From positions 1 through 64,000 of the forward strand of contig VBWA01000019.1 of assembly GCA_006218025.1 (NCBI GenBank): a stretch of DNA of 64,000 bases, written 5' to 3'. A program made the position numbers and the translations under genes. Source of the stretch: Rhodocyclaceae bacterium. GTDB taxonomy: Bacteria; Pseudomonadota; Gammaproteobacteria; Burkholderiales; Rhodocyclaceae. Shown one piece after another: positions 11,191 through 34,357 of the stretch (position 1 is the first letter of the stretch; the number at the start of each line of letters is the position of its first letter). The notes beneath the pieces were generated by a model, which searched no databases, had not been told where the DNA came from, and saw nothing but the letters and a program-made list of their open reading frames with translations.

Positions 11191-11229
11191 GGGACAACCT
11201 TCATCTCTCTAGGTATTCATCCTGATTGT
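11191..11229 (+). promoter_or_regulatory. Bipartite regulatory motif, gfa copy
   Basis: GGGACAACC at 11191 is followed 18 bases later by CTAGGTATTCATCC and then TGATTGT. The mtoX copy has the same GGGACAACC, a 17-base offset, and a tail matching at 17 of 21 positions. A third, weaker copy precedes the sco-sqr-frmA-fghA operon. The site ends 198 bases before the gfa ATG. A plausible target of the FixJ-like regulators encoded nearby; function is inferred. Confidence 0.65.
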
Positions 11230-11427
11230 TCCAAAACGTCAGCCGGATTATTTTTCGGTAAGCAGGTGCAGGCATCAATTGCACGTGTCGCGGCCGAAAG
11301 TATTTTCTTCGACGCTGCAGCGTAAGGAGGGAGCACTGCATCGTGTTCCCGATGGAAGGCACACCCATGTCCTGGGGCGAGCTGTCCTTTGGCCACTGCA
11401 TCCCCTTCGGGGAGGAGGAAACGATTC

Positions 11428-12000
11428 ATGAGCAATACTGTAATGATTCACCCGTCGATAGACGCCGGGATAATGCCGGCACTGCCGGGTTTCGAAGGGG
11501 GAGTTCTGCGCTGCAAGTGTCCTTCGGATCGTGTCGAAGTAACGATCAGCGCACAGACCGCGCACAACCATGCCTGCGGCTGCAGCAAGTGCTGGAAGCC
11601 TAAAGGAGCCCTGTTCTCGCAGGTCGCCGTCGTTTCGCGCGACAAAGTCAAGGTCACCGCGCACGAAGAGAAGCTGAAGATCGTGGACCCCAGCGCGGCG
11701 ATTCAGCGTCATGCCTGCACCGGCTGCGGCGTTCACATGTTCGGCCGGATCGAGAACAAGGCCCACCCGTTCTACGGCCTCGACTTCGTTCATACCGAAC
11801 TCTCGGAAGTTCGCGGCTGGTCCCCGCCGGAGTTCGCTGCGTTTGTTTCATCCATCATCGAAACGGGTACCGATCCGGCTCAGATGCCTGCCATCCGGGC
11901 GCGCTTGAAGCAACTGGGACTGGAACCCTACGACTGCCTGTCGCCACCCCTGATGGATGCCATTGCCACGCACGTCGCCAAGAGCAAAGCCGCGGCATAA
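11428..12000 (+). CDS. gfa: Glutathione-dependent formaldehyde-activating enzyme (Gfa)
   Basis: Zinc protein of the Gfa/CENP-V family that promotes, or at least binds, the condensation of formaldehyde with glutathione to S-hydroxymethylglutathione, the substrate of FrmA. Length 190 residues is normal. Zinc ligands are visible as C29 and C31, C50, C52 and C55 (HACGCSKC), and C97 and C100 (CTGC). The ATG at 11428 follows a strong GGAGGAGG site. Transcription ends at a strong hairpin terminator right after the stop. The bipartite motif 200 bases upstream ties it to the mtoX and frmA operons. Confidence 0.93.
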
Positions 12001-12023
12001 GACACATCGGCTGCAACTGCAGG

Positions 12024-12066
12024 AATGGCCTGTCGTGTGTCTCTGCGCACGACAGGCCATTTTCCT
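12024..12066 (+). terminator. Rho-independent terminator of gfa
   Basis: A perfect 14-base stem, AATGGCCTGTCGTG (12024-12037) with CACGACAGGCCATT (12048-12061), a 10-base loop and a following run TTCCTT. It separates gfa from the histidine kinase gene. The stem is symmetric enough to fold in both orientations. Confidence 0.85.
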
Positions 12067-12175
12067 TGACGCTGCTGTTCTTCTGCTTGCCATGCGGCGC
12101 GTGCGGCACAGGCAGCGCCCCATTTTCCAATCTGCACATTTCACGTTTCAGTCGGCAACCCGAGGCAGACCAGAC

Positions 12176-13432
12176 ATGAGCATTACGACAATTGCAAGCG
12201 CTGCAATGTTGATCGCCGTGATGATCTCGCTGTACTCCATAAGAAGCAATTTCCGTCTGCGCAGTTCCGGGAATATGCTCCAACTGGAAGTGGGTCGGCG
12301 CATACAACTCGAGCAGCAGTTGCTGGAAAAGCAGAATTACCTCACCGCGATCATTCAAACCGAACCTGAATGTGTAAAGCTGCTCTCGCGCGAGGGGCTG
12401 GTACTGGACATCAATCCGGCGGGAGCCGCTCTGATCGATGCCGAACCCGCTCAAGTCCGCGGCACTTGCATTTACAGCGTCGTCGCCCAGCAGGATCAAG
12501 CGCACTACCGCGCGCTTACCGAGCGCGTTTTCCGGGGCGAGTCCGGCATCCTCGAATTTCAGATTGAGAGTCCCAAGGGGCGCATGCGCTGGCTGGAAAC
12601 GCATGCCGTCCCAATGCGCAACGCGGCCGGGACGATCATTGCCCTGCTGGGAATAACCCGGGACATCACGGCACGCAAGAATTCCGACGAGGAAGTGCGG
12701 CGGCATCATTTTGAATTGGCGCGCGTCTGCCGTCTGGTTACCGTGAATGAAATGGCGATGACGCTGGCGCATGAGTTGAACCAGCCTTTGTGCGCCATCA
12801 CCAGCTATATGGAATCCCTGCGCAACATGGCGCGCGAGGCGGAGGGCACTTCCCATGAACGCATGGGGGAAATTGCCGGGAAGGCGGCTGCCCAAGCCGA
12901 GAGAGCCGGCCAGATCATCAGGCGGGTCAGGGAATTTGCCAGCACGCAGGAATCCGGCAAGCTCCCCAGCCATGTCAATTCGCTCATTCAGGATGTGATC
13001 AGCATCTGTATGGCCGAAGCGCGCCAACGCGGGGTGTCGGTGCTGCTGCATCTGGCGGATGAGTTGCCGACCGTGCTGGCCGACCCGATCCTCATCCAGC
13101 AGGTGATCCTGAATCTGATCCGGAATGGAATTGAAGCGATGGAGGAATTGCCCGACGAATCCGGCAGACTGCTGGTGACTACCCGGCGCACGGATGCGGA
13201 TACGGTCGAGGTAACGATTGCCGACAATGGCTGCGGCCTTCCCGATGCAGGAACGGAGAGGGCATTTACGCCGTTCTATACGACCAAGCCCCAGGGCATG
13301 GGCATGGGGCTCTCCATCAGCCGCTCGATCATCAAAGCCCACGGCGGGAACCTGCGTCTGGAAGCCGATTCGCACAGCGGTGGAACGACTGCGCGGTTCT
13401 CGCTTCCTGTCTTTCTGGAGGAACCGGGATGA
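12176..13432 (+). CDS. PAS-domain sensor histidine kinase 1
   Basis: Membrane-anchored sensor kinase of 418 residues. ATG 12176 (MSITTIASAAMLIAV) starts a single N-terminal membrane segment (residues 3-20), followed by a coiled linker and one PAS domain (EPECVKLLSREG to ALLGITRDIT). The HisKA box is LAHELNQPLCAITSYM with the phosphorylated His, and the ATPase shows NLIRNGIEAM, DNGCGLP and GMGMGLSISRSII. The stop overlaps the response regulator start by 4 bases, so the two are co-translated. It is clearly paralogous to the kinase at 23165-24463 over the PAS and kinase regions. The ligand is unknown; context suggests methanethiol, formaldehyde or sulfide. Confidence 0.9.
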   Translation: MSITTIASAAMLIAVMISLYSIRSNFRLRSSGNMLQLEVGRRIQLEQQLLEKQNYLTAIIQTEPECVKLLSREGLVLDINPAGAALIDAEPAQVRGTCIYSVVAQQDQAHYRALTERVFRGESGILEFQIESPKGRMRWLETHAVPMRNAAGTIIALLGITRDITARKNSDEEVRRHHFELARVCRLVTVNEMAMTLAHELNQPLCAITSYMESLRNMAREAEGTSHERMGEIAGKAAAQAERAGQIIRRVREFASTQESGKLPSHVNSLIQDVISICMAEARQRGVSVLLHLADELPTVLADPILIQQVILNLIRNGIEAMEELPDESGRLLVTTRRTDADTVEVTIADNGCGLPDAGTERAFTPFYTTKPQGMGMGLSISRSIIKAHGGNLRLEADSHSGGTTARFSLPVFLEEPG

Positions 13433-14118
13433 ATCCTGTCGTATACATTGTGGATGATGACGATGCAGTAAGGGACAGCCTCTCCACCTTGCTCGGGTCG
13501 GTGCATATCGAGTCCAGGGCCTGCGCGAGCGCACGGGAATTCTTTGCCCTCTACGATCCGGCGTCGCCTGGGTGTCTGGTGCTGGATATCTGCATGCCCG
13601 GGATCAGCGGCCTGGAATTGCAGGAAGTGCTCCTGGCGCGCGGCGCGTCTCTGCCCGTCATCATCATGACCGGCCACGGCAATGTGCAGGCAGCAGTTCA
13701 ATCCATGAAGCTGGGAGCGGTGGATTTCATCGAGAAGCCCTTTCCCCAGGACCATCTTGTCGAATGCATTCGCAAGGCACTCGATGCGGGCAAGGGCCCG
13801 CACAGCTTGAATGCACAACAGGAAGAGATCATGAACCGTGTCAGTCAACTGTCCCCGCGCGAGTTGGAGGTCGCAAGAATTCTGATAACCGGCAGCAGCA
13901 GCAAGGTGATAGCGCGGCAATTGTGCATCAGCCACCGCACCGTCGAGGTATATCGCGCAAAGGTGATGCTCAAGCTGCGGGCCGACTCGCTCTGCCATCT
14001 GGTCAGGATGATGCTGATGATGGAAGACCGGCCAGCGGTAGCCGACCGGTCTTCGTTTGATTCAGACCACGAGCTAAGCAGTCATTTTGATATAGGGCCA
14101 GTAGCCGTAAAGCATTGA
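13429..14118 (+). CDS. FixJ/NarL-type response regulator 1
   Basis: Two-domain regulator of 229 residues paired with the kinase upstream (ATGA overlap). The receiver has the acidic pocket VDDDDA, phospho-acceptor Asp in LVLDICMPG, the switch Thr in IIMTGHG and Lys in FIEKPF. The output is a LuxR-type helix-turn-helix: LSPRELEVARILITGSSSKVIARQLCISHRTVEVYRAKVMLKL. A tail of about 30 residues after the helix-turn-helix is longer than in regulator 2. It converges with the channel gene, sharing 45 bases at the 3' ends. Likely binds the bipartite motifs of the island. Confidence 0.9.
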   Translation: MNPVVYIVDDDDAVRDSLSTLLGSVHIESRACASAREFFALYDPASPGCLVLDICMPGISGLELQEVLLARGASLPVIIMTGHGNVQAAVQSMKLGAVDFIEKPFPQDHLVECIRKALDAGKGPHSLNAQQEEIMNRVSQLSPRELEVARILITGSSSKVIARQLCISHRTVEVYRAKVMLKLRADSLCHLVRMMLMMEDRPAVADRSSFDSDHELSSHFDIGPVAVKH

Positions 14119-14586
14119 CCAGCCGGTAAAGGCCGCGGAAAAACCGACCAGATAGACCATGAAGACCAGGGGCTTTACGACGTTGCTGCCGGTGTAGAGC
14201 AATTTGTAAAGCAGAAACCATGTGATGCCGAAGGCAAGCCACTCGACGGTGAACACCGGGTCGCCGCCCTGGAAGGTCTTGAGCGCAAACGGCACGGTCA
14301 GAACTGCAACCAGCAGGCAATAGAATCCCAGCGCCTTCTGGTCAGCTGCGCCGCGAATCGCGTTAATGCCCACCCACACGTAGGTCATCCCGAACAGGAA
14401 AAATGCCGCCGACAAATGGGCGTTGCCCGCGACGATTCCGAGATATGCCGAATACGCGACGGTTATTGCGCCCACTATCAGATTGAACACACCCACATCC
14501 TTGGTCTCGGCCTTTCCCTGCAGCCAAGCGGCATTGATCAGCAACAGCATCCCGATCATCAGCATCACGATACCGATATAAGCCAT
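14074..14586 (-). CDS. AmiS/UreI-family channel protein
   Basis: Small integral membrane protein of 170 residues with about six hydrophobic helices, from MAYIGIVMLMIGMLLLINAAWL to PLVFMVYLVGFSAAFTGWSMLYGYWPYI. The AmiS/UreI family forms passive channels for urea and short amides; UreI is proton-gated. No urease or amidase gene is nearby, so the substrate here is open. Being placed inside a methanethiol and formaldehyde cluster, it could pass a small neutral C1 or sulfur compound, but that is speculation. It is a single-gene unit opposite to its neighbours. Confidence 0.8.
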   Translation of the reverse strand: MAYIGIVMLMIGMLLLINAAWLQGKAETKDVGVFNLIVGAITVAYSAYLGIVAGNAHLSAAFFLFGMTYVWVGINAIRGAADQKALGFYCLLVAVLTVPFALKTFQGGDPVFTVEWLAFGITWFLLYKLLYTGSNVVKPLVFMVYLVGFSAAFTGWSMLYGYWPYIKMTA

Positions 14587-14729
14587 AAACCCTCTCCTCG
14601 ACCTGTTTCAATTGGCGGTGAGCAGGATGCACACCGCCCCAAGCATCGCTTCGGTTCGCCCGTTGGGTCGAACTCCAGATAGACATGAACAAATTATCCC
14701 TAAAGCAGCGTCCAGGCTATTGGCACAAC

Positions 14730-14817: not shown

Positions 14818-14938
14818 AGCATGCGTGCGGATTTCCCGACGACTGCAGCCTGCTCTACGCTTCTCACTGCCGGCAATTTCGGCATGAATTGGCGGGCCTG
14901 TTCTGCCGTCATATTTGACAAACATCGAGGAGAAAGCA

Positions 14939-15578: not shown

Positions 15579-15582
15579 ATCG

Positions 15583-16558: not shown

Positions 16559-17668
<1,110 letters not shown>

Positions 17669-17774: not shown

Positions 17775-19049
17775 TCATTTGTCCTTGAGCTTCATGATGC
17801 CCAGGGCATTCATGAACATCTTTTCGAATACATGCTCGGTGGTGCCCTTCTTCATCTTGCGCATGAAGAACTTCTCGAACGCCACCTTGGCCAGGTGGAC
17901 CCACTTGCCTTCGGCGAACCAGCTCACATTGCGCGGCGGAATCTGCGGCAGGGCGACAAACGCCGCACCGGTATCGCCGAAATCGGCGAGGCACACCGCG
18001 TTCCAGGTGGCCTTGTGGGTCGGTTCCTTGCCATCAAGTACGTCGCGAATATTGTGTGCTGCCGCGGACACCATGGACTCGATCATGTAGCCGGTCTTCG
18101 GCGCGCCCACCGGCACAGGGGTTGCCTCTACCGGTGGAATGGCGACGCAGACGCCGACCGAATAGACGTTCCCGAATTTCGGGTTGCGCTGATAGGCGTC
18201 GATCAGGATGAAGCCGCGCGGATTGGTCAGGCCCTCGATGCCGAACACCGCATCGACACCCTTGAAGGCCGGCAGCATCATCGAATACTTGAACTCGAGC
18301 ACGTGCTCCTTCTTCACCGTGCCGTCCTCATTGTGCTCGGCGACGAACATCTTGCCGGCTTCGACTTTGGTCACCTTGGCATTGCAGATCCACTTGATGT
18401 GGCGTTCGCGCATGGCCGATTCCATCAGGCCCTTGGAATCGCCTACACCACCCAGGCCGAGATGCCCGACATAGGGTTCGGCCGTAACGAAAGTCATCGG
18501 CACCTTGTCGCGGATCTTGCGTTTGCGCAGGTCGGTATCCATGATCATGGCGAACTCGTAGGCGGGGCCGTAGCACGATGCCCCTTGCACGGCACCCACC
18601 ACAATATGGCCGGGATCCTCGACGAAGTCCTTCCAGGACTTCTCCGCGGTGACGGCATGGTCTACGTGGCAGACCGACTGGGTATGGCCCTTCGGTCCCA
18701 GACCTTCGATCTCGTCGAAGGCCAGCTTGGGGCCGGTAGCGATCACCAGTTGGTCATAGTCGATCATGAGACCATCATCGAGCTCGACCTGGTTGCGGTC
18801 CGGGTGCAGGCGTTTGGCACCGACGGCAATGAAGTCGATGTTCTTCTTCGCCAGCAGGGGCGCGATCTCCAGCTCGATATCCTCGCGCCTACGCCAATCC
18901 ACTGCCACCCACGGGTTCGAAGGCGTGAAGTGAAACTTTGAATTGTTGGATATGACCGTGATGCGGTCTTCCTTCCTCGCCAGCTGGCGCATTTCATACG
19001 CCATTGGCATTCCGCCGATTCCGGCGCCGATAATTACGATGTGGGCCAT
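17775..19049 (-). CDS. sqr: Sulfide:quinone oxidoreductase-family flavoprotein
   Basis: FAD protein of 424 residues expected to oxidise sulfide to sulfur or polysulfide and pass electrons to the quinone pool at the membrane surface. The FAD-binding start is [17 protein letters not shown], a second site reads LVIATGPKL, and three cysteines sit where the enzyme family places its redox and flavin-linked ones: C127, C159 (GASCYGP) and C301 (VGVCVAIPP). The C-terminal stretch with [10 protein letters not shown] is suited to membrane contact. Its place between sco and frmA fits removal of hydrogen sulfide released by methanethiol oxidase. A flavocytochrome c-like or NADH dehydrogenase-like role is less likely without partner genes. 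Confidence 0.85.
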
Positions 19050-19121: not shown

Positions 19122-19814
19122 TCAGCGGGGTTTGTCCAGCATTCCTTCGATGCGCCGAACGACTTCTTCGAGCGGTGTGCCGAATGGAATCACGCCGACC
19201 AGTTTGCCCTCGCCATTTACGACATAAACATTGACGGAATGATCGACGGTATAGCTCGTCGAGCCCGGCGTACGTCCGACGTAGTTGAAGTAGCTGCCAT
19301 AGGCTTTCGCCACCTGCCGCAGTTTCCGTTCGCTGCCCGTGAGCGCGCGGATCGCCGGACTGAAGGCGTTTGCGTATGCGGCGAGCTGTTTGGGGGTATC
19401 CCGCGCCGGATCGACAGAGATGAAAATGGGCTGCACTGCCTCTTTCCTGCTGCCCAGCCGCTCCAGCAGGTCACGGAACAGAAGCAGATCGGTGGGACAG
19501 GCGTCCGGGCATCCGGTATAGCCGAAATAGATCAGCACGATCTTGCCGCGAAGGGAACTGAGCTTGAATGCCCGGCCATCGGTATCGACCAGTGCGAACT
19601 CGCCGCCGAGCGGCCGGGTTTCCTGTCGCGGTGCCTCAGGGGCCTGTGAATGAGCGTGAACCGTCGGCGCCCCGAGCAACAGCATGCTCATGCTGATCGT
19701 CGGGGCGAGCAGGGCAAGGAATCGCCCCATACCCGCGAAGCGACCGGAGCGACCGGGGCGCGGATCGGTGCCTGCCGAGTTCCAATTCGTGGCTGGAGAT
19801 AGGTTTCGGATCAT
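19122..19814 (-). CDS. SCO1/SenC-family copper chaperone 1
   Basis: Thioredoxin-fold copper-delivery protein exported to the periplasm. Copper ligands are the CPDAC pair (FGYTGCPDACPTDLL) and the conserved His in YTVDHSVNVYVV. The ATG at 19814 gives 230 residues; a later ATG (19730) would start directly at the signal peptide GRFLALLAPTISMSMLLLGA with cleavage near VHAHS and may be the real start. It leads the operon sco-sqr-frmA-fghA with the bipartite motif 134 bases upstream. In known methanethiol oxidase loci a SCO protein matures the copper centre of MtoX, so this and the second copy may share that task or serve another oxidase. Confidence 0.9.
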   Translation of the reverse strand: MIRNLSPATNWNSAGTDPRPGRSGRFAGMGRFLALLAPTISMSMLLLGAPTVHAHSQAPEAPRQETRPLGGEFALVDTDGRAFKLSSLRGKIVLIYFGYTGCPDACPTDLLLFRDLLERLGSRKEAVQPIFISVDPARDTPKQLAAYANAFSPAIRALTGSERKLRQVAKAYGSYFNYVGRTPGSTSYTVDHSVNVYVVNGEGKLVGVIPFGTPLEEVVRRIEGMLDKPR

Positions 19815-20134: not shown

Positions 20135-20668
20135 ATGTCGCAAGCAGCCTTGAAGGAAGCACTCAGCAAGACGGTACAGGGCATTCAGGATAATCCTGTC
20201 ATGTCGCGTGTCGTTTTCGAAGCGGAAACCGCGCTGGTCGAAGGCGTCCGCTGCACGGGCAAGGTGCGCAACTTCGCCCCGATCGTCGTGGACGAACCTC
20301 CCGAACTCGGAGGACAGGACAAGGGGGCGAATCCAGTGGAACTGCTTCTGGTGGCTCTCGGCTCATGCCAGGAAATCATGTATGCCGCCATGGCAGCCAT
20401 GATGGGAATCAAGCTGGACGAGGTGAGGGTTAACCTCAAAGGCGCGCTCGATCTGAAGGGCTTGTTCGGCATGGATCCGGCGATACCGCCGGGGTATCAG
20501 AAGATCGCCTTCGAGACCTTCCTCAAGAGTTCGGCCCCGGAGGAAGAACTGCGCAAGCTCATCGAGGCGGTCGAAACTCATTGTCCCGTGCTCGACACGC
20601 TGGTTCGACCGATTGAGGTGACTGGCAAAGTGACCATCAACGGCGCCGCCGTGATGGTGCCGGCCTGA
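20135..20668 (+). CDS. OsmC-family peroxidase 2
   Basis: OsmC/Ohr-fold peroxidase of 177 residues, paralogous to the one at 14939. Catalytic cysteines are C78 (LGSCQEIMYAAM) and C150 (ETHCPVLDTLV). The ATG at 20135 follows an AGAGGAGA ribosome site. It is followed 59 bases later by a dihydrolipoyl dehydrogenase that carries its own lipoyl domain. That pairing is telling, because OsmC/Ohr proteins studied elsewhere use dihydrolipoyl groups as reductant. The pair may form a self-contained peroxide-removal unit for the peroxide made by MtoX. Confidence 0.9.
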   Translation: MSQAALKEALSKTVQGIQDNPVMSRVVFEAETALVEGVRCTGKVRNFAPIVVDEPPELGGQDKGANPVELLLVALGSCQEIMYAAMAAMMGIKLDEVRVNLKGALDLKGLFGMDPAIPPGYQKIAFETFLKSSAPEEELRKLIEAVETHCPVLDTLVRPIEVTGKVTINGAAVMVPA

Positions 20669-20676: not shown

Positions 20677-20702
20677 CGTCGGCGCATTGCTATGCGCCGA
20701 CG
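20677..20702. other. Perfect 10-base-stem hairpin between osmC2 and lpd
   Basis: CGTCGGCGCA (20677-20686) pairs with TGCGCCGACG (20693-20702) around a 6-base loop. There is no T run, so it is more likely an mRNA-stability or attenuation structure than a full terminator. Confidence 0.55.
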
Positions 20703-20727
20703 ATCCACTCGAGGCGGGAGGGTCAAG

Positions 20728-24463: not shown

Positions 24464-24523
24464 TTCGTCAGCATCGCTCCATTGTGCAATGCAACTCTAG
24501 CAGGCTCCGCCGCAGGATCAATA

Positions 24524-24562
24524 AGGGACAACCCCGGACGCCTAGGTAATCACCCCAATTGT
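24524..24562 (+). promoter_or_regulatory. Bipartite regulatory motif, mtoX copy
   Basis: AGGGACAACC at 24524-24533, then CTAGGTAATCACCCC from 24542 and AATTGT to 24562. It matches the gfa copy in the left block exactly and in 17 of 21 bases of the right block. It is 147 bases before the mtoX ATG, close to the 134-base distance at the sco operon. No convincing sigma-70 or sigma-54 promoter could be fixed in the gap by eye. Confidence 0.65.
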
Positions 24563-24709
24563 CGGCCGCGACTGTTCTGCTAAATTACTTTACAAATAAC
24601 AATTCGACACTGGAAGTGTAGCAAATCGCCGTGGAGGCGCACCCGCTTGGATCCCCTTCCGCGCAGAACGCAGCAACCAAAATAGTTCAACCCATGTGAG
24701 GAGAGCAGC

Positions 24710-26056
24710 ATGAAAAACGCAATGCACATCAAGAACCCGGCCCGCAAGATCGCACTAACGATCGCAGTGTCCGCCGCGCTGGCAGGTACGCCGGCGTTCG
24801 CCGACGAAACCAGTTGTTCGCCCTATACGCCGTTGATCAAGGGACAGGAAGATCTGGTCTACGTCTGGACCCTCGGCGTCAAGGGGGTCGGCGACGGTTC
24901 CGACAAACTGGTCACCGTGGACGTCAATCCAAAATCCAAGACCTACGGCAAAGTCATCCACAAGCTGTCGCTCGGTGGCCGCGGCGAAGTGCACCATGTC
25001 GGCCTGTCGGACGACCGCCGCTATCTCTGGGGTGGTGCGCTCGATTCGAACAAGATTTACATTTTCGACATCGGCACCAATCCGGCCAAGCCCAAGCTGA
25101 CCAAAACCATTACCGACTTCGTACAGAAGACCGGCTATGTCGGGCCGCACTCCTTCATCGCGATGCCTGGCCGCATGCTGATCACGCCGCTGTCGAACAA
25201 CAAGGACCATGGCGGCGAGACCGGCGTCGTCGTCTATAACAACAAGGGTGACTACGTCGGGCACCACGCAATGCCCAAGGAGCACGGCGGCGACGGCTAC
25301 GGCTACGATGCCGGGATCAATCCGCAGAAGAACGTGTTCCTCACCTCGTCGTTCACCGGGTGGAACAACTACATGATGGATCTCGGCAAGATGGTCAAGG
25401 ACGGCGAGGCGATGAAGCGCTTCGGCAACACGTCGGTGATGTGGGACCTGAAGACCATGAAGCCGCTCAAGGTGTTCCAGACGCCGGGCGCACCGCTCGA
25501 AGTGCGCTGGTCGTGGAAGGCCGGTGATAACTGGGCCGTCACCACTACGGCGCTTACCTCCAAGATATGGGTCTACAAGCAGGACGCCAAGGGCGAATGG
25601 CAGGTGAAGGACGTCGCCACCATCGGCGATCCGGCCAAGATTCCGCTGCCCGTCGATATCAGCATCACTGCCGACGGACGCGGCATGTGGATCAACACCT
25701 TCATGGACGGTACGACCCGTTACTGGGACATGTCCGACCCGATGAAGCCGAAGGAAACCTTCACCAAGCAGATCGGTTCCCAGGTCAACATGGTGTCGCA
25801 AAGCTTCGACGGCAAGCGCGTGTATTTCACCACGTCGCTGCTGGGCAACTGGGACAAGAAGGGCAAGGACGACGAGCAGTTCCTGAAGATGTACAACTGG
25901 GACGGCAAGGACCTCAAGCTGGCCTTCGAAATCGACTTCTACAAGGCGAAGCTCGGCCGCGCCCACCACATGAAGTTCCAGGCACGCGACCTGTCCACCC
26001 TCAAGCCGCTCGACATGGCATCGAGCCTGCCGGCCCTGCTTGCGCAAAAGCAGTAG
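24710..26056 (+). CDS. mtoX: Methanethiol oxidase (selenium-binding protein 56 family)
   Basis: Periplasmic copper enzyme of the SBP56/SELENBP1 family that oxidises methanethiol with O2 to formaldehyde, hydrogen sulfide and hydrogen peroxide. The 448-residue precursor has a cleavable signal peptide (IALTIAVSAALAGTPAFADE, cut near residue 31). Family blocks are present: GEVHHVGLSDDRRYLWGGAL, GYVGPHSFIAMPGRM, DHGGETGVVVYNNKG, DISITADGRGMWINTFMDG and the His-rich GRAHHMKFQ near the end, supplying likely copper ligands. ATG 24710 follows GAGGAGAGCAGC. It is followed at once by sco and mauG, the same arrangement I know from the Hyphomicrobium mto locus, which separates true methanethiol oxidases from other SBP56 proteins. 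Confidence 0.93.
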   Translation: MKNAMHIKNPARKIALTIAVSAALAGTPAFADETSCSPYTPLIKGQEDLVYVWTLGVKGVGDGSDKLVTVDVNPKSKTYGKVIHKLSLGGRGEVHHVGLSDDRRYLWGGALDSNKIYIFDIGTNPAKPKLTKTITDFVQKTGYVGPHSFIAMPGRMLITPLSNNKDHGGETGVVVYNNKGDYVGHHAMPKEHGGDGYGYDAGINPQKNVFLTSSFTGWNNYMMDLGKMVKDGEAMKRFGNTSVMWDLKTMKPLKVFQTPGAPLEVRWSWKAGDNWAVTTTALTSKIWVYKQDAKGEWQVKDVATIGDPAKIPLPVDISITADGRGMWINTFMDGTTRYWDMSDPMKPKETFTKQIGSQVNMVSQSFDGKRVYFTTSLLGNWDKKGKDDEQFLKMYNWDGKDLKLAFEIDFYKAKLGRAHHMKFQARDLSTLKPLDMASSLPALLAQKQ

Positions 26057-26065
26057 CATTTGCGC

Positions 26066-26761
26066 ATGGGGTTCCCGGCAATGTCGCACCAAACCCGCCT
26101 CCTGATCCGGGGCGGGTTTTTCTTTACCGGCTGGCTGATGGCCTGTCTCGCGTCGGCCGCGCCGATCATGGACTTCGTACCGCCGCCGGCCGGCAGCTAC
26201 AGGCTGGAGCGGATTCAGCCCGCAAGCGAAGGCGCAGTTCTGGATGCCGACGGCAGGCGCCGCCGGCTGTCCGAGTTCACGCAAGGCCGGGTCACGCTGC
26301 TGGCCTTCATGTACTCTTCCTGCGCCGACCCCAACGGCTGCCCCTATGCACTTACCGTCATGCACATGGTGAAGAGCGAACTCGAAAAGCTGCCGGAAAC
26401 CCGTGGCCGGGTCCGCTTCGTCAGCCTTTCCTTCGATCCGGTTCGCGACACGCCACAAACCCTCGCCCTTTACGGACGAGACCACAGCGGCGCCGGGCAG
26501 CATCTGGCCTGGGATTTCCTGACGACGCGCTCGCGCCGCGAACTGCTGCCCATCCTCAACGGTTTCGGCCAGGATGTCGGGGTGGACATCGACAAGGCCA
26601 CCGGCAAACCGGTCGGCACCTACAGCCATGTGCTGAAGGTATTTCTGATCGACCGCCAGCGCACGGTGCGCGAGATTTATACCACCGACTACCTGCTGCC
26701 GGCGATGGTGCTGAACGACATCAAGACCCTGCTCATCGAAGAGGGCGTCAGACTGAAATGA
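26066..26761 (+). CDS. SCO1/SenC-family copper chaperone 2 (mto operon)
   Basis: About 231-residue exported thioredoxin-fold protein. The copper motif is expanded: CADPNGCPY, with seven residues between region start and second Cys, rather than the usual CxxxC, and the conserved His is in YSHVLKVFLIDRQR. The signal peptide reads LLIRGGFFFTGWLMACLASAAP. Possible starts are TTG 26060, ATG 26066 or ATG 26081; I chose 26066. It begins about 10 bases after mtoX and overlaps mauG by 4 bases. Known mto loci carry a SCO gene here, presumably for copper loading of MtoX. A terminator-like hairpin lies inside its signal-peptide codons. Confidence 0.88.
   Translation: MGFPAMSHQTRLLIRGGFFFTGWLMACLASAAPIMDFVPPPAGSYRLERIQPASEGAVLDADGRRRRLSEFTQGRVTLLAFMYSSCADPNGCPYALTVMHMVKSELEKLPETRGRVRFVSLSFDPVRDTPQTLALYGRDHSGAGQHLAWDFLTTRSRRELLPILNGFGQDVGVDIDKATGKPVGTYSHVLKVFLIDRQRTVREIYTTDYLLPAMVLNDIKTLLIEEGVRLK
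26091..26121 (+). terminator. Terminator-like hairpin inside the start of the second sco gene
   Basis: AAACCCGCC (26091-26099) pairs perfectly with GGCGGGTTT (26111-26119) across an 11-base loop and is followed by TTCTTT. It lies 35-65 bases after the mtoX stop, within the codons of the downstream signal peptide. It could reduce readthrough from mtoX into sco-mauG, setting a high MtoX to maturation-protein ratio. Confidence 0.6.
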
Positions 26762-27948: not shown

Positions 27949-27955
27949 AGCTCCC

Positions 27956-28543
27956 ATGGAAAAGCCCGATGCACCTTCCTGCCGGCGCAACCGGGAGCCG
28001 ATCCTCGCGGTGCTGCGTGATCATTTCGCTGACCGCCGGCATGTGCTGGAGATCGGCAGCGGCACCGGTCAGCACGCAATCTATTTCGCAGCCGCTTTGC
28101 CGCATCTGACCTGGCAGGCGACGGACCGCAGAGAGAACCTTGCAGGGATTCACGCCTGGCTGGACGAGGCGGCCTTGCCCAATACACCGGCCCCGCTCGC
28201 GCTCGACGTCATGGGCGTGTGGCCGACGCATCGCTTCGACGCGGTTTTCAGCGCCAATACCCTGCACATCATGAGTTGGGCGGAAGTCGAGCAGGTGTTC
28301 GCCTGCCTGCCCGGGGTGATGACCGCCGACGCCCGGCTCGCCGTCTACGGCCCCTTCAATTGCGGGGGCCGCTTCACCAGCGCGAGCAACGCCGCCTTTG
28401 ACGCATCGCTCAAGGAACGGGACTCGCAGCAGGGCATACGCGATTTTGAAGCCGTCGATGCACTGGCCGGCAAGGCTGGCCTGAGATTGATCGAAGACCG
28501 CGCAATGCCGTCGAACAATCGATGCGTGGTCTGGAGCCGATAG
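27956..28543 (+). CDS. DUF938-family SAM-dependent methyltransferase
   Basis: 195-residue class I methyltransferase, start ATG 27956, eight bases after mauG. Motif I is HVLEIGSGTGQHAIYFA, the strand-2 acidic residue is in WQATDRR, and FDAVFSANTLHIMSW follows. The family is widespread but of unknown substrate. Its tight spacing behind mtoX-sco-mauG suggests co-transcription. Whether it acts on a sulfur compound or is just a neighbour cannot be read from sequence. Confidence 0.85.
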   Translation: MEKPDAPSCRRNREPILAVLRDHFADRRHVLEIGSGTGQHAIYFAAALPHLTWQATDRRENLAGIHAWLDEAALPNTPAPLALDVMGVWPTHRFDAVFSANTLHIMSWAEVEQVFACLPGVMTADARLAVYGPFNCGGRFTSASNAAFDASLKERDSQQGIRDFEAVDALAGKAGLRLIEDRAMPSNNRCVVWSR

Positions 28544-29587: not shown

Positions 29588-32427
29588 GCGCCGGAAAGCC
29601 GCGATACCTGCACTGCGGTGACCTTGTACTCGGGGCAGTTGGTGGCCCAGTCCGAGTTGTCGGTGGTGATCACGTTGGCGCCGGACTCGGGGAAGTGGAA
29701 AGTGGTGTAGACCACACCGGGCTGCACCCGCTCGGTGATCGTTGCCGGCAGCGTCGTGCTGCCGGCGCGCGACTCGATGCCGACGCGGTCACCGTCGCGG
29801 ATGCCGCGCTCCTCGGCATCATGCGGATGGATCTCGAGCAGGTCGGCGCCGTAAAAGTCGGTGTTGGCGGTACGGCGAGTCTGCGCGCCAACGTTGTACT
29901 GCGAGAGCACGCGGCCGGTGGTCAGCAGCAGCGGAAAGCGGCGCGTGACCTTTTCGTCGGTCGGCACGTACTGGGTAATCAGGAAACGTCCCTTGCCGCG
30001 CACGAATTCATCGACGTGCATGGTCGGCGTGCCCTCGGGTGCCGCCTCGTTGCAGGGCCATTGCAGGCTGCCCGCGCGTTCCAGCTTGTCGTAGCTGACA
30101 CCGGCAAAGGTCGGCGTCAGGCGCGCTATCTCGTCCATGATCCGGCTCGGGTGTTCGTAGTGCATCGCGTAGCCCAGGGCATTGGCCAGCGCCATGGTCA
30201 CTTCCCAGTCGGCCATCCCGGCCAGCGGCGGCATCACGCCGCGGACGCGGGAAATTCGCCGCTCGGCGTTGGTGAAGGTGCCGTCCTTTTCGAGGAAGGA
30301 GGCGCCGGGCAGGAAGACGTGGGCGTACTTCGCCGTCTCGTTGAGGAACAGGTCCTGCACTACCACGCACTCCATGGCGGACAACGCGGCGACCACGTGA
30401 TGCGTGTTGGGATCGGACTGCGCCGGGTCCTCGCCCTGGCAGTAGAGGCCGAGGAAGGAACCGTCCAGCGCCGCATCGAGCATGTTGGGAATACGCAGGC
30501 CCGGCTCGGGCTGGATTTCCACGCCCCAGTCGCGCTCGAACATTTCACGGGTAAGCGTGTCGGACACATGGCGGTAGCCGGGCAGTTCGTGCGGGAAGCT
30601 GCCCATGTCGCAGGAGCCCTGCACGTTGTTCTGCCCGCGCAGCGGATTGACGCCGACGCCCTCGCGGCCGACATTGCCGGTGGCCATGGCGAGGTTGGCG
30701 ATGGCGATCACGGCGGTCGAACCCTGGGAATGTTCGGTGACGCCGAGGCCGTAGTAGATCGCGGCGTTTCCGGCGCCGGCATAGAGCCGGGCGGCGGCGC
30801 GGACATCGGCGGCCGGCACGCCGCTGGCGGCCTCCAGTGCCTCGGGCGAATTGGCCGGGCGCGCGACAAATTCGCGCCACTCGGCGAAGGCCCTGGCTTC
30901 GCAGCGTTCGGCGACGAAGGCCGAGTCGACCCGCCCTTCGGTGACGATCACATGCGCCATCGCCGACAGCACGGCGACATTGGTGCCCGGCTTGAGCTTC
31001 AAGTGATGCGCGGCCTTGATATGCGGCGAACTGACCAGATCGATCTCCCGCGGATCGATCACGACCAGTTGCGCACCCTCGCGCACGCGGCGCTTGAGGC
31101 GCGAGGCGAACACCGGGTGGCCGTCGCTGGGGTTGGCCCCGATCACGACGATGACGTCGGCCTGCTCGACCGACTTGAAGGTCTGTGTGCCCGCCGATTC
31201 GCCGAGCGTCTGCTTGAGGCCGTAGCCGGTCGGCGAATGGCAGACGCGGGCGCAGGTGTCCACGTTGTTGTTGCCGAAGGCCGTGCGCACCAGCTTCTGC
31301 ACCAGGTAATCCTCTTCGTTGGTGCAGCGGCTGGAGACGATGGCGCCGACGGCATTGCGGCCGTGCCGAGCCTGGATGCGGCGGAACTCCGAGGCGGCGT
31401 AGGCCAGCGCATCATCCCAGGGTACTTCGCGCCACGGATCGCCGATTTTCGCCCGGATCATCGGCTTGGTGATGCGATCGGGATGGGTCGCGTAACCCCA
31501 GGCGAAGCGGCCCTTGACGCAGGCGTGGCCCTCGTTGGCGCGCCCGTCCTTCCACGGCACCATGCGCACCACTTCCGTTCCTTGCATCTCTGCGCGGAAG
31601 CCGCAGCCGACGCCGCAATAGGCGCAGGTGGTGGTCACGCTGTGCTCGGCCTGTCCCTTGTCGATGATGGTCTTTTCCATCAGCGTCGCCGTCGGGCAGG
31701 CATTGACGCAGGCGCCGCAGGAGACACACTCGGAGTCCATGAAGCTCTCGTCCTGCCCCGCCGTCACGCGCGAGTCGAAACCGCGACCGCTGATGGTCAA
31801 GGCGAAGGTCCCCTGCTGTTCCTCGCAGGCGCGCACGCAGCGGTTGCAGACGATGCACTTGCCTGGATCGAAGCTGAAGTAGGGATTCGATTCGTCCCTG
31901 ACGACATCGGTGAAATGGTTCTCGCCGAGGCTCGCCTCGCCCGCGCCATAGCGCACCTCGCGCAGGCCGACCACGCCGGCCATGGTCTGCAGCTCGCAGT
32001 TGCCGTTGGCGGAACAGGTCAGGCAGTCCAGCGGATGGTCGGAGATATAGAGTTCCATGACGTTGCGGCGCAATTCGGCCAATTTCGGCGACTGGGTGCG
32101 CACCTTCATGCCGGCTTCGGCGGGCGTCGTGCAGGAGGCGGGATAGCCCTTGCGACCTTCGATCTCGACCAGGCACAGGCGGCAGGAGCCGAAGGCCTTG
32201 AGGGAATCGGTGGCACAAAGCTTGGGCACCATCACGCCGGCCTCGGCAGCGGCGCGCAGCAGCGAGGTGCCCGCCGGCACGCTCACGGCGAGGCCGTCGA
32301 TCTCCAGCTTCACCGTTACCTGCCGGCAAAGCGGAGTCCCAGGTACGCAGAGCGAGCCAGCGCCAACGCTCTGCGTCCCTTTGGGAACTCCTGGCGTGCC
32401 GTAATCGATCTCGCCGCGCGCGTTCAT
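29584..32427 (-). CDS. fdsA: NAD-dependent formate dehydrogenase subunit alpha
   Basis: Catalytic molybdenum subunit, 947 residues, oxidising formate to CO2. After a short leader come a [2Fe-2S] domain (FGSCRLCLVEIEG), a His-Cys [4Fe-4S] segment (DHPLDCLTCSANGNCELQ), two ferredoxin clusters (CIVCNRCVRACEE; CVSCGACVNACP), the N-terminal cluster of the molybdopterin domain (CAYCGVGC) and the Mo ligand cysteine in CARVCHSPTGYG. It is a cysteine enzyme, not selenocysteine. Residues about 12-32 are extra relative to the family and come from a hairpin repeat inserted in frame (32333-32391). The last step of methanethiol-carbon oxidation, yielding NADH. Confidence 0.96.
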   Translation of the reverse strand: MNARGEIDYGTPGVPKGTQSVGAGSLCVPGTPLCRQVTVKLEIDGLAVSVPAGTSLLRAAAEAGVMVPKLCATDSLKAFGSCRLCLVEIEGRKGYPASCTTPAEAGMKVRTQSPKLAELRRNVMELYISDHPLDCLTCSANGNCELQTMAGVVGLREVRYGAGEASLGENHFTDVVRDESNPYFSFDPGKCIVCNRCVRACEEQQGTFALTISGRGFDSRVTAGQDESFMDSECVSCGACVNACPTATLMEKTIIDKGQAEHSVTTTCAYCGVGCGFRAEMQGTEVVRMVPWKDGRANEGHACVKGRFAWGYATHPDRITKPMIRAKIGDPWREVPWDDALAYAASEFRRIQARHGRNAVGAIVSSRCTNEEDYLVQKLVRTAFGNNNVDTCARVCHSPTGYGLKQTLGESAGTQTFKSVEQADVIVVIGANPSDGHPVFASRLKRRVREGAQLVVIDPREIDLVSSPHIKAAHHLKLKPGTNVAVLSAMAHVIVTEGRVDSAFVAERCEARAFAEWREFVARPANSPEALEAASGVPAADVRAAARLYAGAGNAAIYYGLGVTEHSQGSTAVIAIANLAMATGNVGREGVGVNPLRGQNNVQGSCDMGSFPHELPGYRHVSDTLTREMFERDWGVEIQPEPGLRIPNMLDAALDGSFLGLYCQGEDPAQSDPNTHHVVAALSAMECVVVQDLFLNETAKYAHVFLPGASFLEKDGTFTNAERRISRVRGVMPPLAGMADWEVTMALANALGYAMHYEHPSRIMDEIARLTPTFAGVSYDKLERAGSLQWPCNEAAPEGTPTMHVDEFVRGKGRFLITQYVPTDEKVTRRFPLLLTTGRVLSQYNVGAQTRRTANTDFYGADLLEIHPHDAEERGIRDGDRVGIESRAGSTTLPATITERVQPGVVYTTFHFPESGANVITTDNSDWATNCPEYKVTAVQVSRLSGA
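32333..32391. repeat. Palindromic repeat inserted in frame near the fdsA start
   Basis: The inner stem CGCAGAGCG (32346-32354) pairs with CGCTCTGCG (32367-32375) around a 12-base loop, and outer arms GGAGTCCC and GGGAACTCC pair imperfectly. Read in frame it adds about 20 residues between the conserved EIDYGTP leader and QVTVKLEIDG. The loop contains CCAGCGCC, echoing the core of the dispersed 23-base repeat. Confidence 0.65.
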
Positions 32428-33917
32428 ACGAAATCCTCGGGAAAGTGGTTCAGCGCGGAGAGCACCGGGATCGGCGTCATGCTGCCCATGGCGCACAGCG
32501 AGCCGTTTGTCATGGTGTCGCAGAGGCTGCGCAGCAGCCCGATCTGTCCGGTCTGTCCGGCGCGGATGCGGTCGATGACTTCGACCCCGCGCGTCGAGCC
32601 GATGCGGCAGGGCGTGCATTTGCCGCAGGATTCGATGGCGCAGAATTTCATCGCGTAGCGCGCCTGCCTGGCCATGTCCACGCTGTCGTCGAAGGCGACG
32701 ATGCCGCCGTGGCCGAGCCCGGCGCCGATCGCCGCGAAGGCCTCGTAGTCGAGCACGGTGTCGAACTGCGATGCGGGCAGCCAGGCGCCCAGCGGACCGC
32801 CCACTTGCACAGCGCGCAACGGCCGCCCCGAACGCGAGCCGCCGCCGAAACCGTAGAGCAGCTCACGCAACCTAAGGCCGAAGGGCACCTCGACCAGGCC
32901 GCCGTACCTGATGTTGCCTGCGAGCTGGAAAGGCAGCGTGCCGCGCGAGCGGCCGCTGCCCAGGTCGCGGTAGGCAGCGGCGCCCTGCGCCAGTATGTCC
33001 GGCACGCTGCCAAAGGTGATGACGTTGTTGATTACCGTCGGCTGGCCGAACAGACCCGAGATCGCCGGCAGCGGCGGCTTGGCGCGGACGATGCCGCGTC
33101 GGCCCTCGAGACTTTCGAGCAGCGCGGTTTCCTCTCCGCAGACGTAGGAACCGGCGCCCTTGCGCACTTCGATCCTGAAATCGCCGAGCCAGTCCCGCGC
33201 GCCATCAAGCGCTGCATTCAATGCGGCAATGGCGTGCGGATATTCGGAGCGAACGTAGATGTAGCCTCGCGTGGCGCCGACTGCGAGACCGGCAATGGCC
33301 ATGCCTTCGAGCAACTGGAAGGGGTCGCCCTCCATCAGCAGACGGTCGGAGAAGGTACCGGAATCGCCCTCGTCGGCATTGCAGACGATGTGCTTCTGTG
33401 TCGCCGGGGTGTCGAGCACGGTCTGCCACTTGATGCCGGTCGGAAAAGCTGCGCCGCCACGCCCGCGCAAGCCCGAGTCGGCCACCTGGCGCACGATCCC
33501 GGCTGGCGCCATGCCACGGGCGCGCTGCAAGCCCTCGCCGCCGCCATGGGCCAGGTAGTCGTCGAGAGAGCGCGGATCGACCACGCCGATACGCCGGCAG
33601 GCAAGGCGTTGCTGGCGCTTGAGCCAGGGCAGTTCCTCGGTGACGCCCAGACGCAGCGGGTGGGCGCCGCCGCCCATGCAGCCGGCAGCGAAAAGGCCGT
33701 GCACGTCGGGAGCGGCCACGGGGCCATAGGCGATCCGACCCCGCGGGGTGGACACTTCGACCAGGGGTTCGAGCCAGAACATGCCGCGCGAACCGTTGCG
33801 CACGAGTTGGAGGTCGATGCCGCGCCGTGATGCTTCAGTGGCGATCGCTGCGGCAACCGCATCCGCACCGAGGGCCAGCGCAGCGGCATCGCCCGGAACA
33901 TAAACCTTGATGTTCAT
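32424..33917 (-). CDS. fdsB: Formate dehydrogenase subunit beta, NuoF-like
   Basis: 497-residue diaphorase subunit that passes electrons from the iron-sulfur chain to NAD through FMN. The N-terminal 110 residues form a thioredoxin-like domain (MNIKVYVPGDAAAL). The FMN/NAD fold follows: GLRGRGGAAFPTGIKWQ, NADEGDSGTFSDR, GAGSYVCGEETALLESLEG. The [4Fe-4S] cluster is in ESCGKCTPCRIGS with a further Cys in GSLCAMG. ATG 33917 overlaps the fdsG stop by 4 bases. Confidence 0.96.
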   Translation of the reverse strand: MNIKVYVPGDAAALALGADAVAAAIATEASRRGIDLQLVRNGSRGMFWLEPLVEVSTPRGRIAYGPVAAPDVHGLFAAGCMGGGAHPLRLGVTEELPWLKRQQRLACRRIGVVDPRSLDDYLAHGGGEGLQRARGMAPAGIVRQVADSGLRGRGGAAFPTGIKWQTVLDTPATQKHIVCNADEGDSGTFSDRLLMEGDPFQLLEGMAIAGLAVGATRGYIYVRSEYPHAIAALNAALDGARDWLGDFRIEVRKGAGSYVCGEETALLESLEGRRGIVRAKPPLPAISGLFGQPTVINNVITFGSVPDILAQGAAAYRDLGSGRSRGTLPFQLAGNIRYGGLVEVPFGLRLRELLYGFGGGSRSGRPLRAVQVGGPLGAWLPASQFDTVLDYEAFAAIGAGLGHGGIVAFDDSVDMARQARYAMKFCAIESCGKCTPCRIGSTRGVEVIDRIRAGQTGQIGLLRSLCDTMTNGSLCAMGSMTPIPVLSALNHFPEDFV

Positions 33918-34357
33918 CGGTCGGCCCCGAGCGCATCGATCAGCGCGTCGAATTTTTCCGGCGTGACGTGGGCGTGCAGCGTCCTCTCGTCGATCTGCAG
34001 CGCCGGGCCCATGGCGCACAGGCCAAGGCAATACACGGGTTCCAGCGTCAGGTCGCTGCCCTCCAGTCGCACCCTGGCGTGCTCCGCCAGAGCTTCGCCG
34101 CCGACCGCCTGGCAGGCCTCGGCACAGCAGACGCGGACCACGTGGCGGCCCGGCGGCGCCTGGCGGAAGTGGTGGTAGTAGGTGATGACGCCATGTACTT
34201 CGGCGCGCGAGAGATTGAGTTCCCTCGCGATCAGGGGTACGGACTCGGGCGGGATGTAGCCGAATTCCTCCTGGATCTCGTGCAGAATCGGCAGCAGGGC
34301 GCCGGGCACGGTTTGTTTCGCAGCAACGATGCGCAAGACGGCGCCAAGGGTTTCCAT
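33914..34357 (-). CDS. fdsG: Formate dehydrogenase subunit gamma, NuoE-like
   Basis: 147-residue [2Fe-2S] subunit. It begins with the helical LLPILHEIQEEFGYIPPESVPLIARELNLSRAEVHGVITYYHHF and the cluster cysteines are in VCCAEACQAVG and YCLGLCAMGPAL. It is the first structural gene of the fdsGBA-fdhD-fdsD operon, 52 bases downstream of the LysR gene on the same strand. Confidence 0.95.
   Translation of the reverse strand: METLGAVLRIVAAKQTVPGALLPILHEIQEEFGYIPPESVPLIARELNLSRAEVHGVITYYHHFRQAPPGRHVVRVCCAEACQAVGGEALAEHARVRLEGSDLTLEPVYCLGLCAMGPALQIDERTLHAHVTPEKFDALIDALGADR

What the first reader, a model, noticed from the sequence alone, without database searches (positions are those of the whole stretch)
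11191..34357. Complete methanethiol-to-CO2 pathway with its own regulators in one block
Sequence shows mtoX-sco-mauG, gfa, frmA, fghA, sqr and a full Fds formate dehydrogenase operon within 23 kb, with two kinase/regulator pairs and two OsmC proteins. Known chemistry of MtoX (formaldehyde, sulfide, peroxide) is matched product by product by neighbouring genes: FrmA/FghA/Fds for carbon, SQR for sulfide, OsmC-Lpd for peroxide. MtoX with SCO and MauG is known from Hyphomicrobium; this wider arrangement with product handling and regulation is what looks new to me.
Basis: partly seen in the sequence, partly recalled or inferred. Interest (0 to 1): 0.85.

Follow-up and report, generated by a model that had tools for sequence, protein, structure and literature searches.

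The report
Methanethiol oxidase plugged into formaldehyde block
A bacterium of or near the genus Sulfuritalea keeps the gene for breaking down the smelly gas methanethiol inside a ready-made block of genes for disposing of formaldehyde, and the same DNA switch sits in front of one gene of each kind, which suggests how a new food source can be wired into an existing detoxification circuit.

Summary
The window, from a Sulfuritalea-genus genome, carries mtoX-sco-diheme peroxidase with gfa, frmA, fghA, a three-cysteine SQR, Fds formate dehydrogenase, two FixL/FixJ-like pairs and two OsmC proteins. Enzymes for methanethiol -> formaldehyde -> formate -> CO2 are all present.

The "purpose-built block" reading needs correcting. 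Four Sulfuritalea genomes without mtoX keep gfa-fghA-frmA and HK2/RR2, with HK2 and DUF938 151-261 bp apart exactly where this window has mtoX-sco1-mbnH. So mtoX is a cassette added to, or lost from, an older block.

The coupling is still real. A 42-43-bp two-part operator, present upstream of gfa in 9 of 9 Sulfuritalea contigs, lies upstream of mtoX in 7 of 9 mtoX-bearing genomes. In this genome its core matches without mismatch only before gfa and mtoX.

Outside the genus, gfa, fghA and this SQR are near mtoX in 0 of 73 loci. An unusual three-cysteine OsmC is in 9 of 73 (6 of these with Lpd, 6 with a lipoyl carrier) and Fds in 7. SQR near mtoX is already published for Methylophaga. No activity, binding or induction was tested.

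The parts
11188..11230 (+). shared two-part operator upstream of gfa (TCAGGGACAACC, 9 bp, CTAGGTATTCATCC...ATTGTT)
   Evidence: present upstream of gfa in 9 of 9 Sulfuritalea contigs; core one of two zero-mismatch matches in the genome
11428..12000 (+). gfa, S-(hydroxymethyl)glutathione synthase
   Evidence: TIGR02820 332.5 bits, cut-off 234.55
12176..13432 (+). HK1, PAS histidine kinase; not at 50% identity or more in the 8 other contigs that span gfa-fghA
   Evidence: Pfam; comparison
13429..14118 (+). RR1, response regulator with LuxR-type HTH
   Evidence: Pfam
14074..14586 (-). AmiS/UreI family channel
   Evidence: PF02293 99.3 bits
14939..15478 (+). OsmC1, three-cysteine OsmC
   Evidence: PF02566; C40, C77, C150
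15583..16500 (-). fghA, S-formylglutathione hydrolase
   Evidence: TIGR02821 432.2 bits, cut-off 281.7
16559..17668 (-). frmA, S-(hydroxymethyl)glutathione dehydrogenase
   Evidence: TIGR02818 631.3 bits, cut-off 543.95
17775..19049 (-). sulfide:quinone reductase, type I-like
   Evidence: PDB 3sz0 7.6e-157, three cysteines aligned; in 2 of 9 contigs that show this side of frmA: window and G800
19122..19814 (-). sco2, SCO1/SenC protein
   Evidence: PF02630 145.3 bits; found in 5 of 5 mtoX+ and 0 of 4 mtoX- loci that hold frmA
20135..20668 (+). OsmC2, three-cysteine OsmC (C40, C78, C150)
20692..22521 (+). lipoyl domain fused to dihydrolipoyl dehydrogenase
   Evidence: TIGR01350 436.8 bits, cut-off 408.8; PF00364
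22582..23193 (-). RR2, FixJ-like response regulator
   Evidence: NF006900 FixJ 232.2 bits, cut-off 255
23165..24463 (-). HK2, FixL-like PAS histidine kinase
24522..24563 (+). shared two-part operator between HK2 and mtoX (TAAGGGACAACC, 8 bp, CTAGGTAATCACCCCAATTGTC)
24710..26056 (+). mtoX, methanethiol oxidase with Sec-type leader
   Evidence: NF052453 734.7 bits, cut-off 650; histidine motifs
26060..26761 (+). sco1, SCO1/SenC copper chaperone-like
   Evidence: PF02630 44 bits
26758..27948 (+). mbnH/mauG-like diheme peroxidase
   Evidence: PF03150 169.6 bits; TIGR04039 below cut-off; PDB 6e1c 3.8e-44
27956..28543 (+). DUF938 methyltransferase-like protein; right flank of the empty site in congeners
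   Evidence: PF06080
28572..28805 (-). fdsD (start approximate)
   Evidence: PF11390
28796..29587 (-). fdhD
   Evidence: PF02634
29584..32619 (-). fdsA (ORF bounds; true start inside)
   Evidence: Pfam
32424..34031 (-). fdsB (ORF bounds; true start inside)
   Evidence: Pfam
33914..34357 (-). fdsG
   Evidence: PF01257
34410..35336 (-). LysR-type regulator next to fds
   Evidence: Pfam

Best explanation
This is a formaldehyde/formate oxidation block of Sulfuritalea into which a methanethiol oxidase cassette (mtoX-sco1-mbnH) has been placed, or from which some relatives have lost it, next to a FixL/FixJ-like kinase/regulator pair. Periplasmic Cu-dependent MtoX, matured by the SCO and diheme proteins, splits methanethiol to formaldehyde, reduced or sulfane sulfur and peroxide. 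Gfa/FrmA/FghA/Fds take the formaldehyde to CO2, SQR takes sulfide, and the OsmC/lipoyl-Lpd pair reduces peroxides or other thiol oxidants with NADH. The regulator encoded beside mtoX (RR2) most likely binds the shared two-part operator, so that mtoX and gfa are switched together. Shown here: gene content, family membership, synteny, the empty site, and the shared operator. Inferred: substrate and products in this organism, which regulator binds, the signal sensed, and the role of OsmC.
For: MtoX, Gfa, FrmA, FghA and Lpd pass curated cut-offs. MtoX keeps the HH, GPH and GRAHH histidine motifs. Synteny in other contigs of the genus. HK2 and DUF938 are 151-261 bp apart in G782, G792, G732 and G785, which have no mtoX match, and 239 bp apart in G800, where the cassette sits beside lpd. 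An operator model trained on 9 gfa promoters scores the window's mtoX promoter at 49.3 bits against 7.6 for the next non-gfa site on both strands of 64 kb, and mtoX promoters at 28.0-53.9 bits in 7 of 9 mtoX+ genomes. The two misses, G784 and G807 (86 and 83% complete), also gave no close frmA orthologue. The core pattern matches without mismatch twice in the 4.44-Mb genome, at gfa and mtoX, and only these two of 12 sites with at most one mismatch carry the left half; the pattern was written from such sites. The HK2-DUF938 gap holds the operator in 5 of 5 genomes without mtoX there (17.2-47.5 bits), as expected if RR2 also acts beside its own operon. In the genus a close frmA orthologue is in 6 of 9 mtoX+ and 4 of 22 mtoX- genomes (Fisher p 0.015, ignoring relatedness and incomplete assemblies).
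Against: No expression, binding or enzyme data. The whole-window scan shows no further operator above 7.6 bits, so not before frmA, fds or osmC; joint control of the whole pathway is not shown. Of 7 osmC2 promoters scored, only G782's (16.0 bits) stands out from shuffles. OsmC2 was not found in 4 of 9 mtoX+ genomes and was found in 2 of 22 mtoX-. RR2 and HK2 fall below the FixJ and FixL cut-offs. Gain versus loss of the cassette is not settled: Sulfuritalea MtoX group together but with weak support (44/0). Three of the four empty-site genomes are 82-85% complete, though each site is read through on one contig.
Confidence: 0.7

Rival explanations
1. The block is a general formaldehyde-stress and C1 oxidation island (for methanol, methylamine or lignin-derived methoxyl carbon) and mtoX is a chance neighbour with its own independent role.
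For: The block persists without mtoX in four congeners. In G784 no block gene was seen in the 29 kb around mtoX, and in G807 no HK2 in the 1.4 kb upstream. gfa, fghA and this SQR are near mtoX in 0 of 73 loci outside the genus and frmA in 1.
Against: mtoX carries the same operator as gfa in 7 of 9 genomes, including G800, where the cassette lies elsewhere in the block. sco2, 5 kb from mtoX here and 9-11 kb in G778, G788 and G791, was found in 5 of 5 mtoX+ and 0 of 4 mtoX- loci that hold frmA. RR2/HK2 homologues adjoin mtoX in G728 and G733, where no formaldehyde gene was seen in the stretches fetched.
Confidence: 0.2
2. One reading: a purpose-built, complete methanethiol-to-CO2 unit with all product handling under its own regulators.
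For: All enzyme steps are present within 23 kb; the gfa/mtoX operator is shared.
Against: The carbon part and HK2/RR2 stand without mtoX in relatives; no operator before frmA, fds or osmC in the window; HK1/RR1, amiS and osmC1 in 0 of 8 other contigs spanning gfa-fghA, sqr otherwise only in G800.
Confidence: 0.07
3. OsmC/lipoyl-Lpd here is not a peroxide reductase but a lipoyl-based persulfide or mixed-disulfide reductase that deals with the sulfur product of MtoX. (This competes with one part of the best explanation, not with the whole.)
For: In Thiobacillus and Methylophilaceae loci the same OsmC stands with a rhodanese-like protein and a GcvH-like lipoyl protein, and in most with Lpd; in Methylobacillus also with lipB and lipA. 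MTO sulfur product reported as sulfane sulfur (PMC10936201, passages). Dihydrolipoate can accept sulfane sulfur from rhodanese (stated in PMC6067878, passages).
Against: Both cysteines at the positions expected for an OsmC/Ohr peroxidase are kept (the expectation is recalled), and lipoyl-dependent peroxidase activity of Ohr/OsmC is the recalled precedent. No assay.
Confidence: 0.3

Closest known systems
mtoX-SCO1/senC-mauG operon of Hyphomicrobium sp. VS and others (PMC5739008, passages read)
   Same: Same three genes in the same order; MtoX passes the NCBIfam methanethiol oxidase cut-off.
   Different: In the passages read the conserved context is these three genes, with an IclR regulator upstream in Ruegeria; here a FixL/FixJ-like pair, gfa/frmA/fghA, OsmC-Lpd and Fds lie around it with an operator shared by gfa and mtoX.
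mto-clusters 1 and 2 of Methylophaga thiooxydans (PMC6548844, passages read)
   Same: mtoX with SCO/MauG functions, a further SCO/TlpA-like protein and a sulfide:quinone reductase in one cluster.
   Different: The passages read list pdo and sulP (cysC and a methyltransferase gene in one cluster) and name no formaldehyde, formate, OsmC or two-component gene there; its formaldehyde goes through H4F/H4MPT.
Thiobacillus thioparus DSM 505 mtoX locus (L065)
   Same: mtoX-sco-diheme with a formaldehyde gene, a sulfide oxidation gene and OsmC plus Lpd nearby.
   Different: Non-homologous parts: Fae instead of Gfa/FrmA/FghA, an FccB-like flavoprotein instead of SQR, a separate GcvH-like carrier and rhodanese-like protein instead of a lipoyl-Lpd fusion.
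sHdr-LbpA sulfur oxidation in Hyphomicrobium denitrificans (PMC6067878, passages read)
   Same: A lipoyl carrier protein linked to DMS-derived sulfur.
   Different: No Hdr-like gene among the proteins scanned in the block; the lipoyl domain here is fused to Lpd and next to OsmC.

Membership tests
Methanethiol oxidase (MtoX, NF052453) | score over the curated cut-off | tested here: met
   734.7 vs 650 bits; 0 of 14 control genomes over the cut-off
Methanethiol oxidase (MtoX, NF052453) | conserved Cu-ligand histidines and Sec leader | tested here: met
   H95, H96, H147 and H419 invariant in 7 aligned MtoX; leader end AFA-DET by eye, no SignalP run; ligands as named in PMC5739008
Methanethiol oxidase (MtoX, NF052453) | methanethiol-oxidising activity | not testable with these tools
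   needs purified protein or cells
MauG/MbnH diheme maturation enzyme | score over the MauG (TIGR03791) or MbnH (TIGR04039) cut-off | tested here: not met
   205.3 vs 443.85 and 242.8 vs 362.85 bits (on an ORF read from an upstream start); di-haem peroxidase domain PF03150 is clear
Glutathione-dependent formaldehyde oxidation (Gfa, FrmA, FghA) | each enzyme over its equivalog cut-off | tested here: met
   TIGR02820, TIGR02818, TIGR02821
Fds NAD-dependent formate dehydrogenase | FdsG, FdsB, FdsA and FdsD side by side with FdhD | tested here: met
   Pfam domains in order on the minus strand
Sulfide:quinone reductase type I | full-length similarity and three redox cysteines | tested here: met
   3sz0 over residues 2-423 with C127, C159, C353 aligned; NCBIfam gave only a weak SQR match under cut-off (107.9 vs 525); the type number and cysteine roles are recalled
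FixL/FixJ two-component system | score over FixJ (NF006900) and FixL (NF041777) cut-offs | tested here: not met
   232.2 vs 255 and 244.2 vs 850 bits for RR2 and HK2; HK1/RR1 not scanned with NCBIfam
OsmC/Ohr lipoyl-dependent peroxidase | OsmC domain with the two conserved cysteines | tested here: met
   PF02566; C78 and C150 in 14 of 14 aligned mtoX-linked OsmC, plus a third invariant C40
OsmC/Ohr lipoyl-dependent peroxidase | hydroperoxide reduction with lipoyl-Lpd | not testable with these tools
   needs an assay

The most novel reading that the evidence does not exclude
A three-cysteine OsmC (C40, C78, C150) with a lipoyl carrier and dihydrolipoyl dehydrogenase is an unrecognised NADH-driven partner of methanethiol oxidase, clearing its peroxide, persulfide or mixed-disulfide product, and many MtoX loci are built from such a core plus exchangeable formaldehyde and sulfide modules, wired in, in Sulfuritalea, by the operator of the formaldehyde gene.
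Probability: 0.3. Interest if true: 0.65.

Novelty: new variant of a known kind. Interest (0 to 1): 0.5.

Why it matters
Methanethiol oxidation releases several toxic products at once, and how bacteria co-ordinate their disposal is largely open. An operator whose core was found in this genome only at gfa and mtoX gives a direct, small test of that co-ordination. The empty sites in near relatives show that a methanethiol cassette can be added to or dropped from an existing formaldehyde circuit. The recurrent three-cysteine OsmC/lipoyl/Lpd neighbours point to a possible missing partner of MtoX.

Tried and rejected
Gap-free 20-base comparison of intergenic regions gave at most 16 of 20 matches, not clearly above the background of other pairs; the operator was clear only after comparing orthologous promoters. 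Inverted-repeat search of four promoters gave nothing that I could match between them. A shuffle test of the 14-base core with 2 mismatches in the window alone is weak (2 matches; 12 of 100 shuffles had at least 2); the evidence rests on the longer model and on conservation. osmC2 promoters: 1 of 7 (G782, 16.0 bits) stands out, the window's does not (-7.6), so OsmC was not put in the regulon. Of 73 named loci outside the genus I scored the mtoX promoters of 13: 12 show no convincing operator, one (L078, the same contig as G728) gives 8.2 bits. OsmC2 structure prediction reached mean pLDDT 74.4 and was not used. dsrA came out as four partial matches on three contigs, none over cut-off. The reading that the arrangement is unique to this genome was rejected. 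Thresholds for those counts: E 1e-12, identity 30%, coverage 50%.
Full report
Gene content. MtoX scores 734.7 bits against a curated cut-off of 650, FrmA 631.3 against 543.95, FghA 432.2 against 281.7, Gfa 332.5 against 234.55 and Lpd 436.8 against 408.8. The Lpd carries an N-terminal lipoyl domain (PF00364). The SQR matches solved sulfide-quinone reductases (3sz0, 7.6e-157) with three cysteines aligned, though NCBIfam gives only a weak SQR match. The diheme protein belongs to the CCP/MauG domain family, is nearest MbnH-like 6e1c (3.8e-44, named 'Di-heme enzyme'; MbnH is recalled), and is below both the MbnH and MauG cut-offs.

Where it comes from. The window is G000:C32 of a 4.44-Mb, 99.97%-complete genome. 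Named relatives with the nearest mtoX are Sulfuritalea and Rhodocyclales MAGs; equal contig lengths identify G793 with L051 and G788 with L054, both titled Sulfuritalea sp. I therefore call the genus Sulfuritalea; it is a name by genomes of the same genus (g1), not by a 16S test.

Distribution of mtoX. Matches over the cut-off: 15 of 300 genomes of the order, 5 of 121 of the family, 9 of 31 of the genus and 5 of 398 of the phylum, the own genome included each time; 0 of 14 control genomes.

Synteny and the empty site. G778 and G791 carry gfa-fghA-frmA, a SCO, HK2/RR2, mtoX-sco1-mbnH, DUF938 and fds together (G778 with osmC2-lpd as well); G788 carries gfa to DUF938 and lysR as far as its fetched stretch goes; G800 runs from fghA to fds and lysR with the cassette beside lpd. 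Four genomes with no mtoX match (G782, G792, G732, G785; completeness 85, 82, 99, 83%) hold gfa-fghA-frmA, a P-type metal ATPase, COX1-like and COX2-like proteins (both far below their cut-offs), heme O synthase, RR2-HK2 and DUF938 on one contig. Two of them (G782, G792) have osmC2-lpd. fds genes follow in G792 and G732, and fdsG in G782 before the contig ends; none was seen in the stretch fetched for G785. HK2 and DUF938 lie 151-261 bp apart there, where the window has the 3.2-kb cassette. sco2 was found in 5 of 5 mtoX+ loci that hold frmA (window, G800, G791, G788, G778, at 56-100% identity) and in 0 of 4 mtoX- ones. In the window and G800 sqr stands between frmA and sco2; it was not found in the 7 other contigs that show this side of frmA. 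HK1, RR1, amiS and osmC1 were in 0 of 8 other contigs that span gfa-fghA. In G784 no block gene was seen in 29 kb around mtoX; in G807 (a 4.2-kb contig) no HK2 upstream. G782, G784, G785, G786, G791, G792 and G807 are 79-87% complete, and G800 and G793 carry 10% and 6% contamination.

Operator. Promoters of gfa in 9 of 9 contigs share TCAGGGACAACC-N9-CTAGGTAWTCRYCCNNATTGYY, with small variation. A matrix made from the right halves of the 8 gfa sites outside the window gives the window's gfa site 35.7 bits, mtoX 28.6 and the next site 13.1. A two-part model from all 9 gfa sites gives 61.6, 49.3 and 7.6. mtoX promoters score 28.0-53.9 in 7 of 9 mtoX+ genomes; G784 and G807 have none. The HK2-DUF938 gap scores 17.2-47.5 in 5 of 5 genomes with no mtoX there. 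Shuffles of each promoter (40 each) reached at most 9.3. In the whole genome the 13-base pattern TAGGTAWTYAYCC matches without mismatch twice, both in the window, and of 12 sites with at most one mismatch only these two carry the left half. The control (pattern read backwards) gave 5 matches against 12. The pattern was written from gfa and mtoX sites, so the count says that there is no third good site, not that these two are independent finds; the matrix results are the independent test for mtoX. RR2 is the best candidate for the binder because its operon stands beside the mtoX operator and the operator stays with HK2 when mtoX is absent; RR1 is not excluded.

Neighbours outside the genus. Of 73 named loci (the 80 returned less seven Sulfuritalea loci), within about 10 kb of mtoX: diheme protein 43, OsmC 9, Fds 7 (one at 38% identity), Lpd 6, rhodanese-like 6, GcvH-like lipoyl protein 6, HK2/RR2 homologues 5, Fae 5, another SQR type 4, FccB-like 3, frmA 1 (Comamonas badia), gfa 0, fghA 0, this SQR 0. 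The 6 loci with Lpd and the 6 with the lipoyl protein are all among the 9 with OsmC. Thiobacillus thioparus has Fae, an FccB-like protein, rhodanese-like and GcvH-like proteins, Lpd and OsmC; Methylobacillus MM3 has lipB and lipA beside Lpd. In a tree of 50 MtoX rows chosen from those in hand, the OsmC-bearing loci fall in three separate clades: Thiobacillus/Methylophilaceae/Sulfuritalea, UBA6910, and Panacagrimonas with SZAS-18. All 14 mtoX-linked OsmC aligned (5 of them from Sulfuritalea) keep three cysteines. In the order-wide search of 300 genomes only G000 and G170, both mtoX+, have an OsmC2 match over 150 bits (2 of 15 mtoX+, 0 of 285 others; Fisher p 0.002, relatedness ignored, the two draws of 300 taken as the same); so 13 of 15 mtoX+ genomes there do not have it. 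The next relatives (G148, G175, G065) keep CQEI and HCPV but lack C40. Within the genus osmC2 is in 5 of 9 mtoX+ and 2 of 22 mtoX- genomes (Fisher p 0.012).

Literature. Passages read: PMC5739008 (MTO identification; mtoX-SCO-mauG; IclR regulator in Ruegeria), PMC6548844 (Methylophaga mto-clusters with sqrB, pdo, sulP), PMC10936201 (sulfane sulfur as MTO product), PMC6067878 (lipoate-binding proteins in sulfur oxidation), PMC5069961 (OsmC raised under sulfur limitation in Pelagibacter). Searches listed no paper whose title or abstract start describes mtoX with OsmC/Lpd, with a two-component pair, or with gfa/frmA/fghA. I saw only listings for the rest; subscription papers and supplements were not searched, so this is a limited claim.

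Verdict. It is a new variant of a known kind: a known enzyme cassette in a new, partly conserved setting with an operator shared with the formaldehyde gene.

Noticed in passing
L065:3167-6705 (similar order in L060 and L067): A Rieske oxygenase-like set with a reductase lies upstream of mtoX in Thiobacillus thioparus, followed by what looks like a binding protein and an ABC ATPase; the oxygenase and reductase match NCBIfam models below cut-off. It recalls methanesulfonate monooxygenase (recalled, not tested) and could feed C1-sulfur to this locus.
   Followed up: partly
window:24803-24850 (MtoX residues 32-46): In Sulfuritalea, G728, G092 and G150 the single cysteine of mature MtoX stands in DETSCSP, one residue later than in the more usual DETCNSP; a paper on Rhodobacteraceae MTO stresses a conserved TCQSPYM cysteine (PMC10936201).
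   Followed up: no
G707:C4:7613-8821: An MtoX homologue just under the cut-off (627.3 vs 650) with two changed histidine motifs (HQ, GPR) and no cysteine in the mature protein, perhaps a copy that lost copper.
   Followed up: no
L051, L052, L054-L057 and G782, G792, G732, G785 (clusters c14, c17, c18, c19): A divergent oxidase-like pair with heme O synthase and a metal ATPase sits, whole or in part, in the block of these loci, but was not found in window 14709-36710.
   Followed up: partly
window:2379-11009: ORFs here look like dnaE2-, imuB- and imuA-like genes ending at a lexA-like gene next to gfa (an SOS mutagenesis cassette); names are recalled from the sequence starts, no family scan was run.
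   Followed up: no
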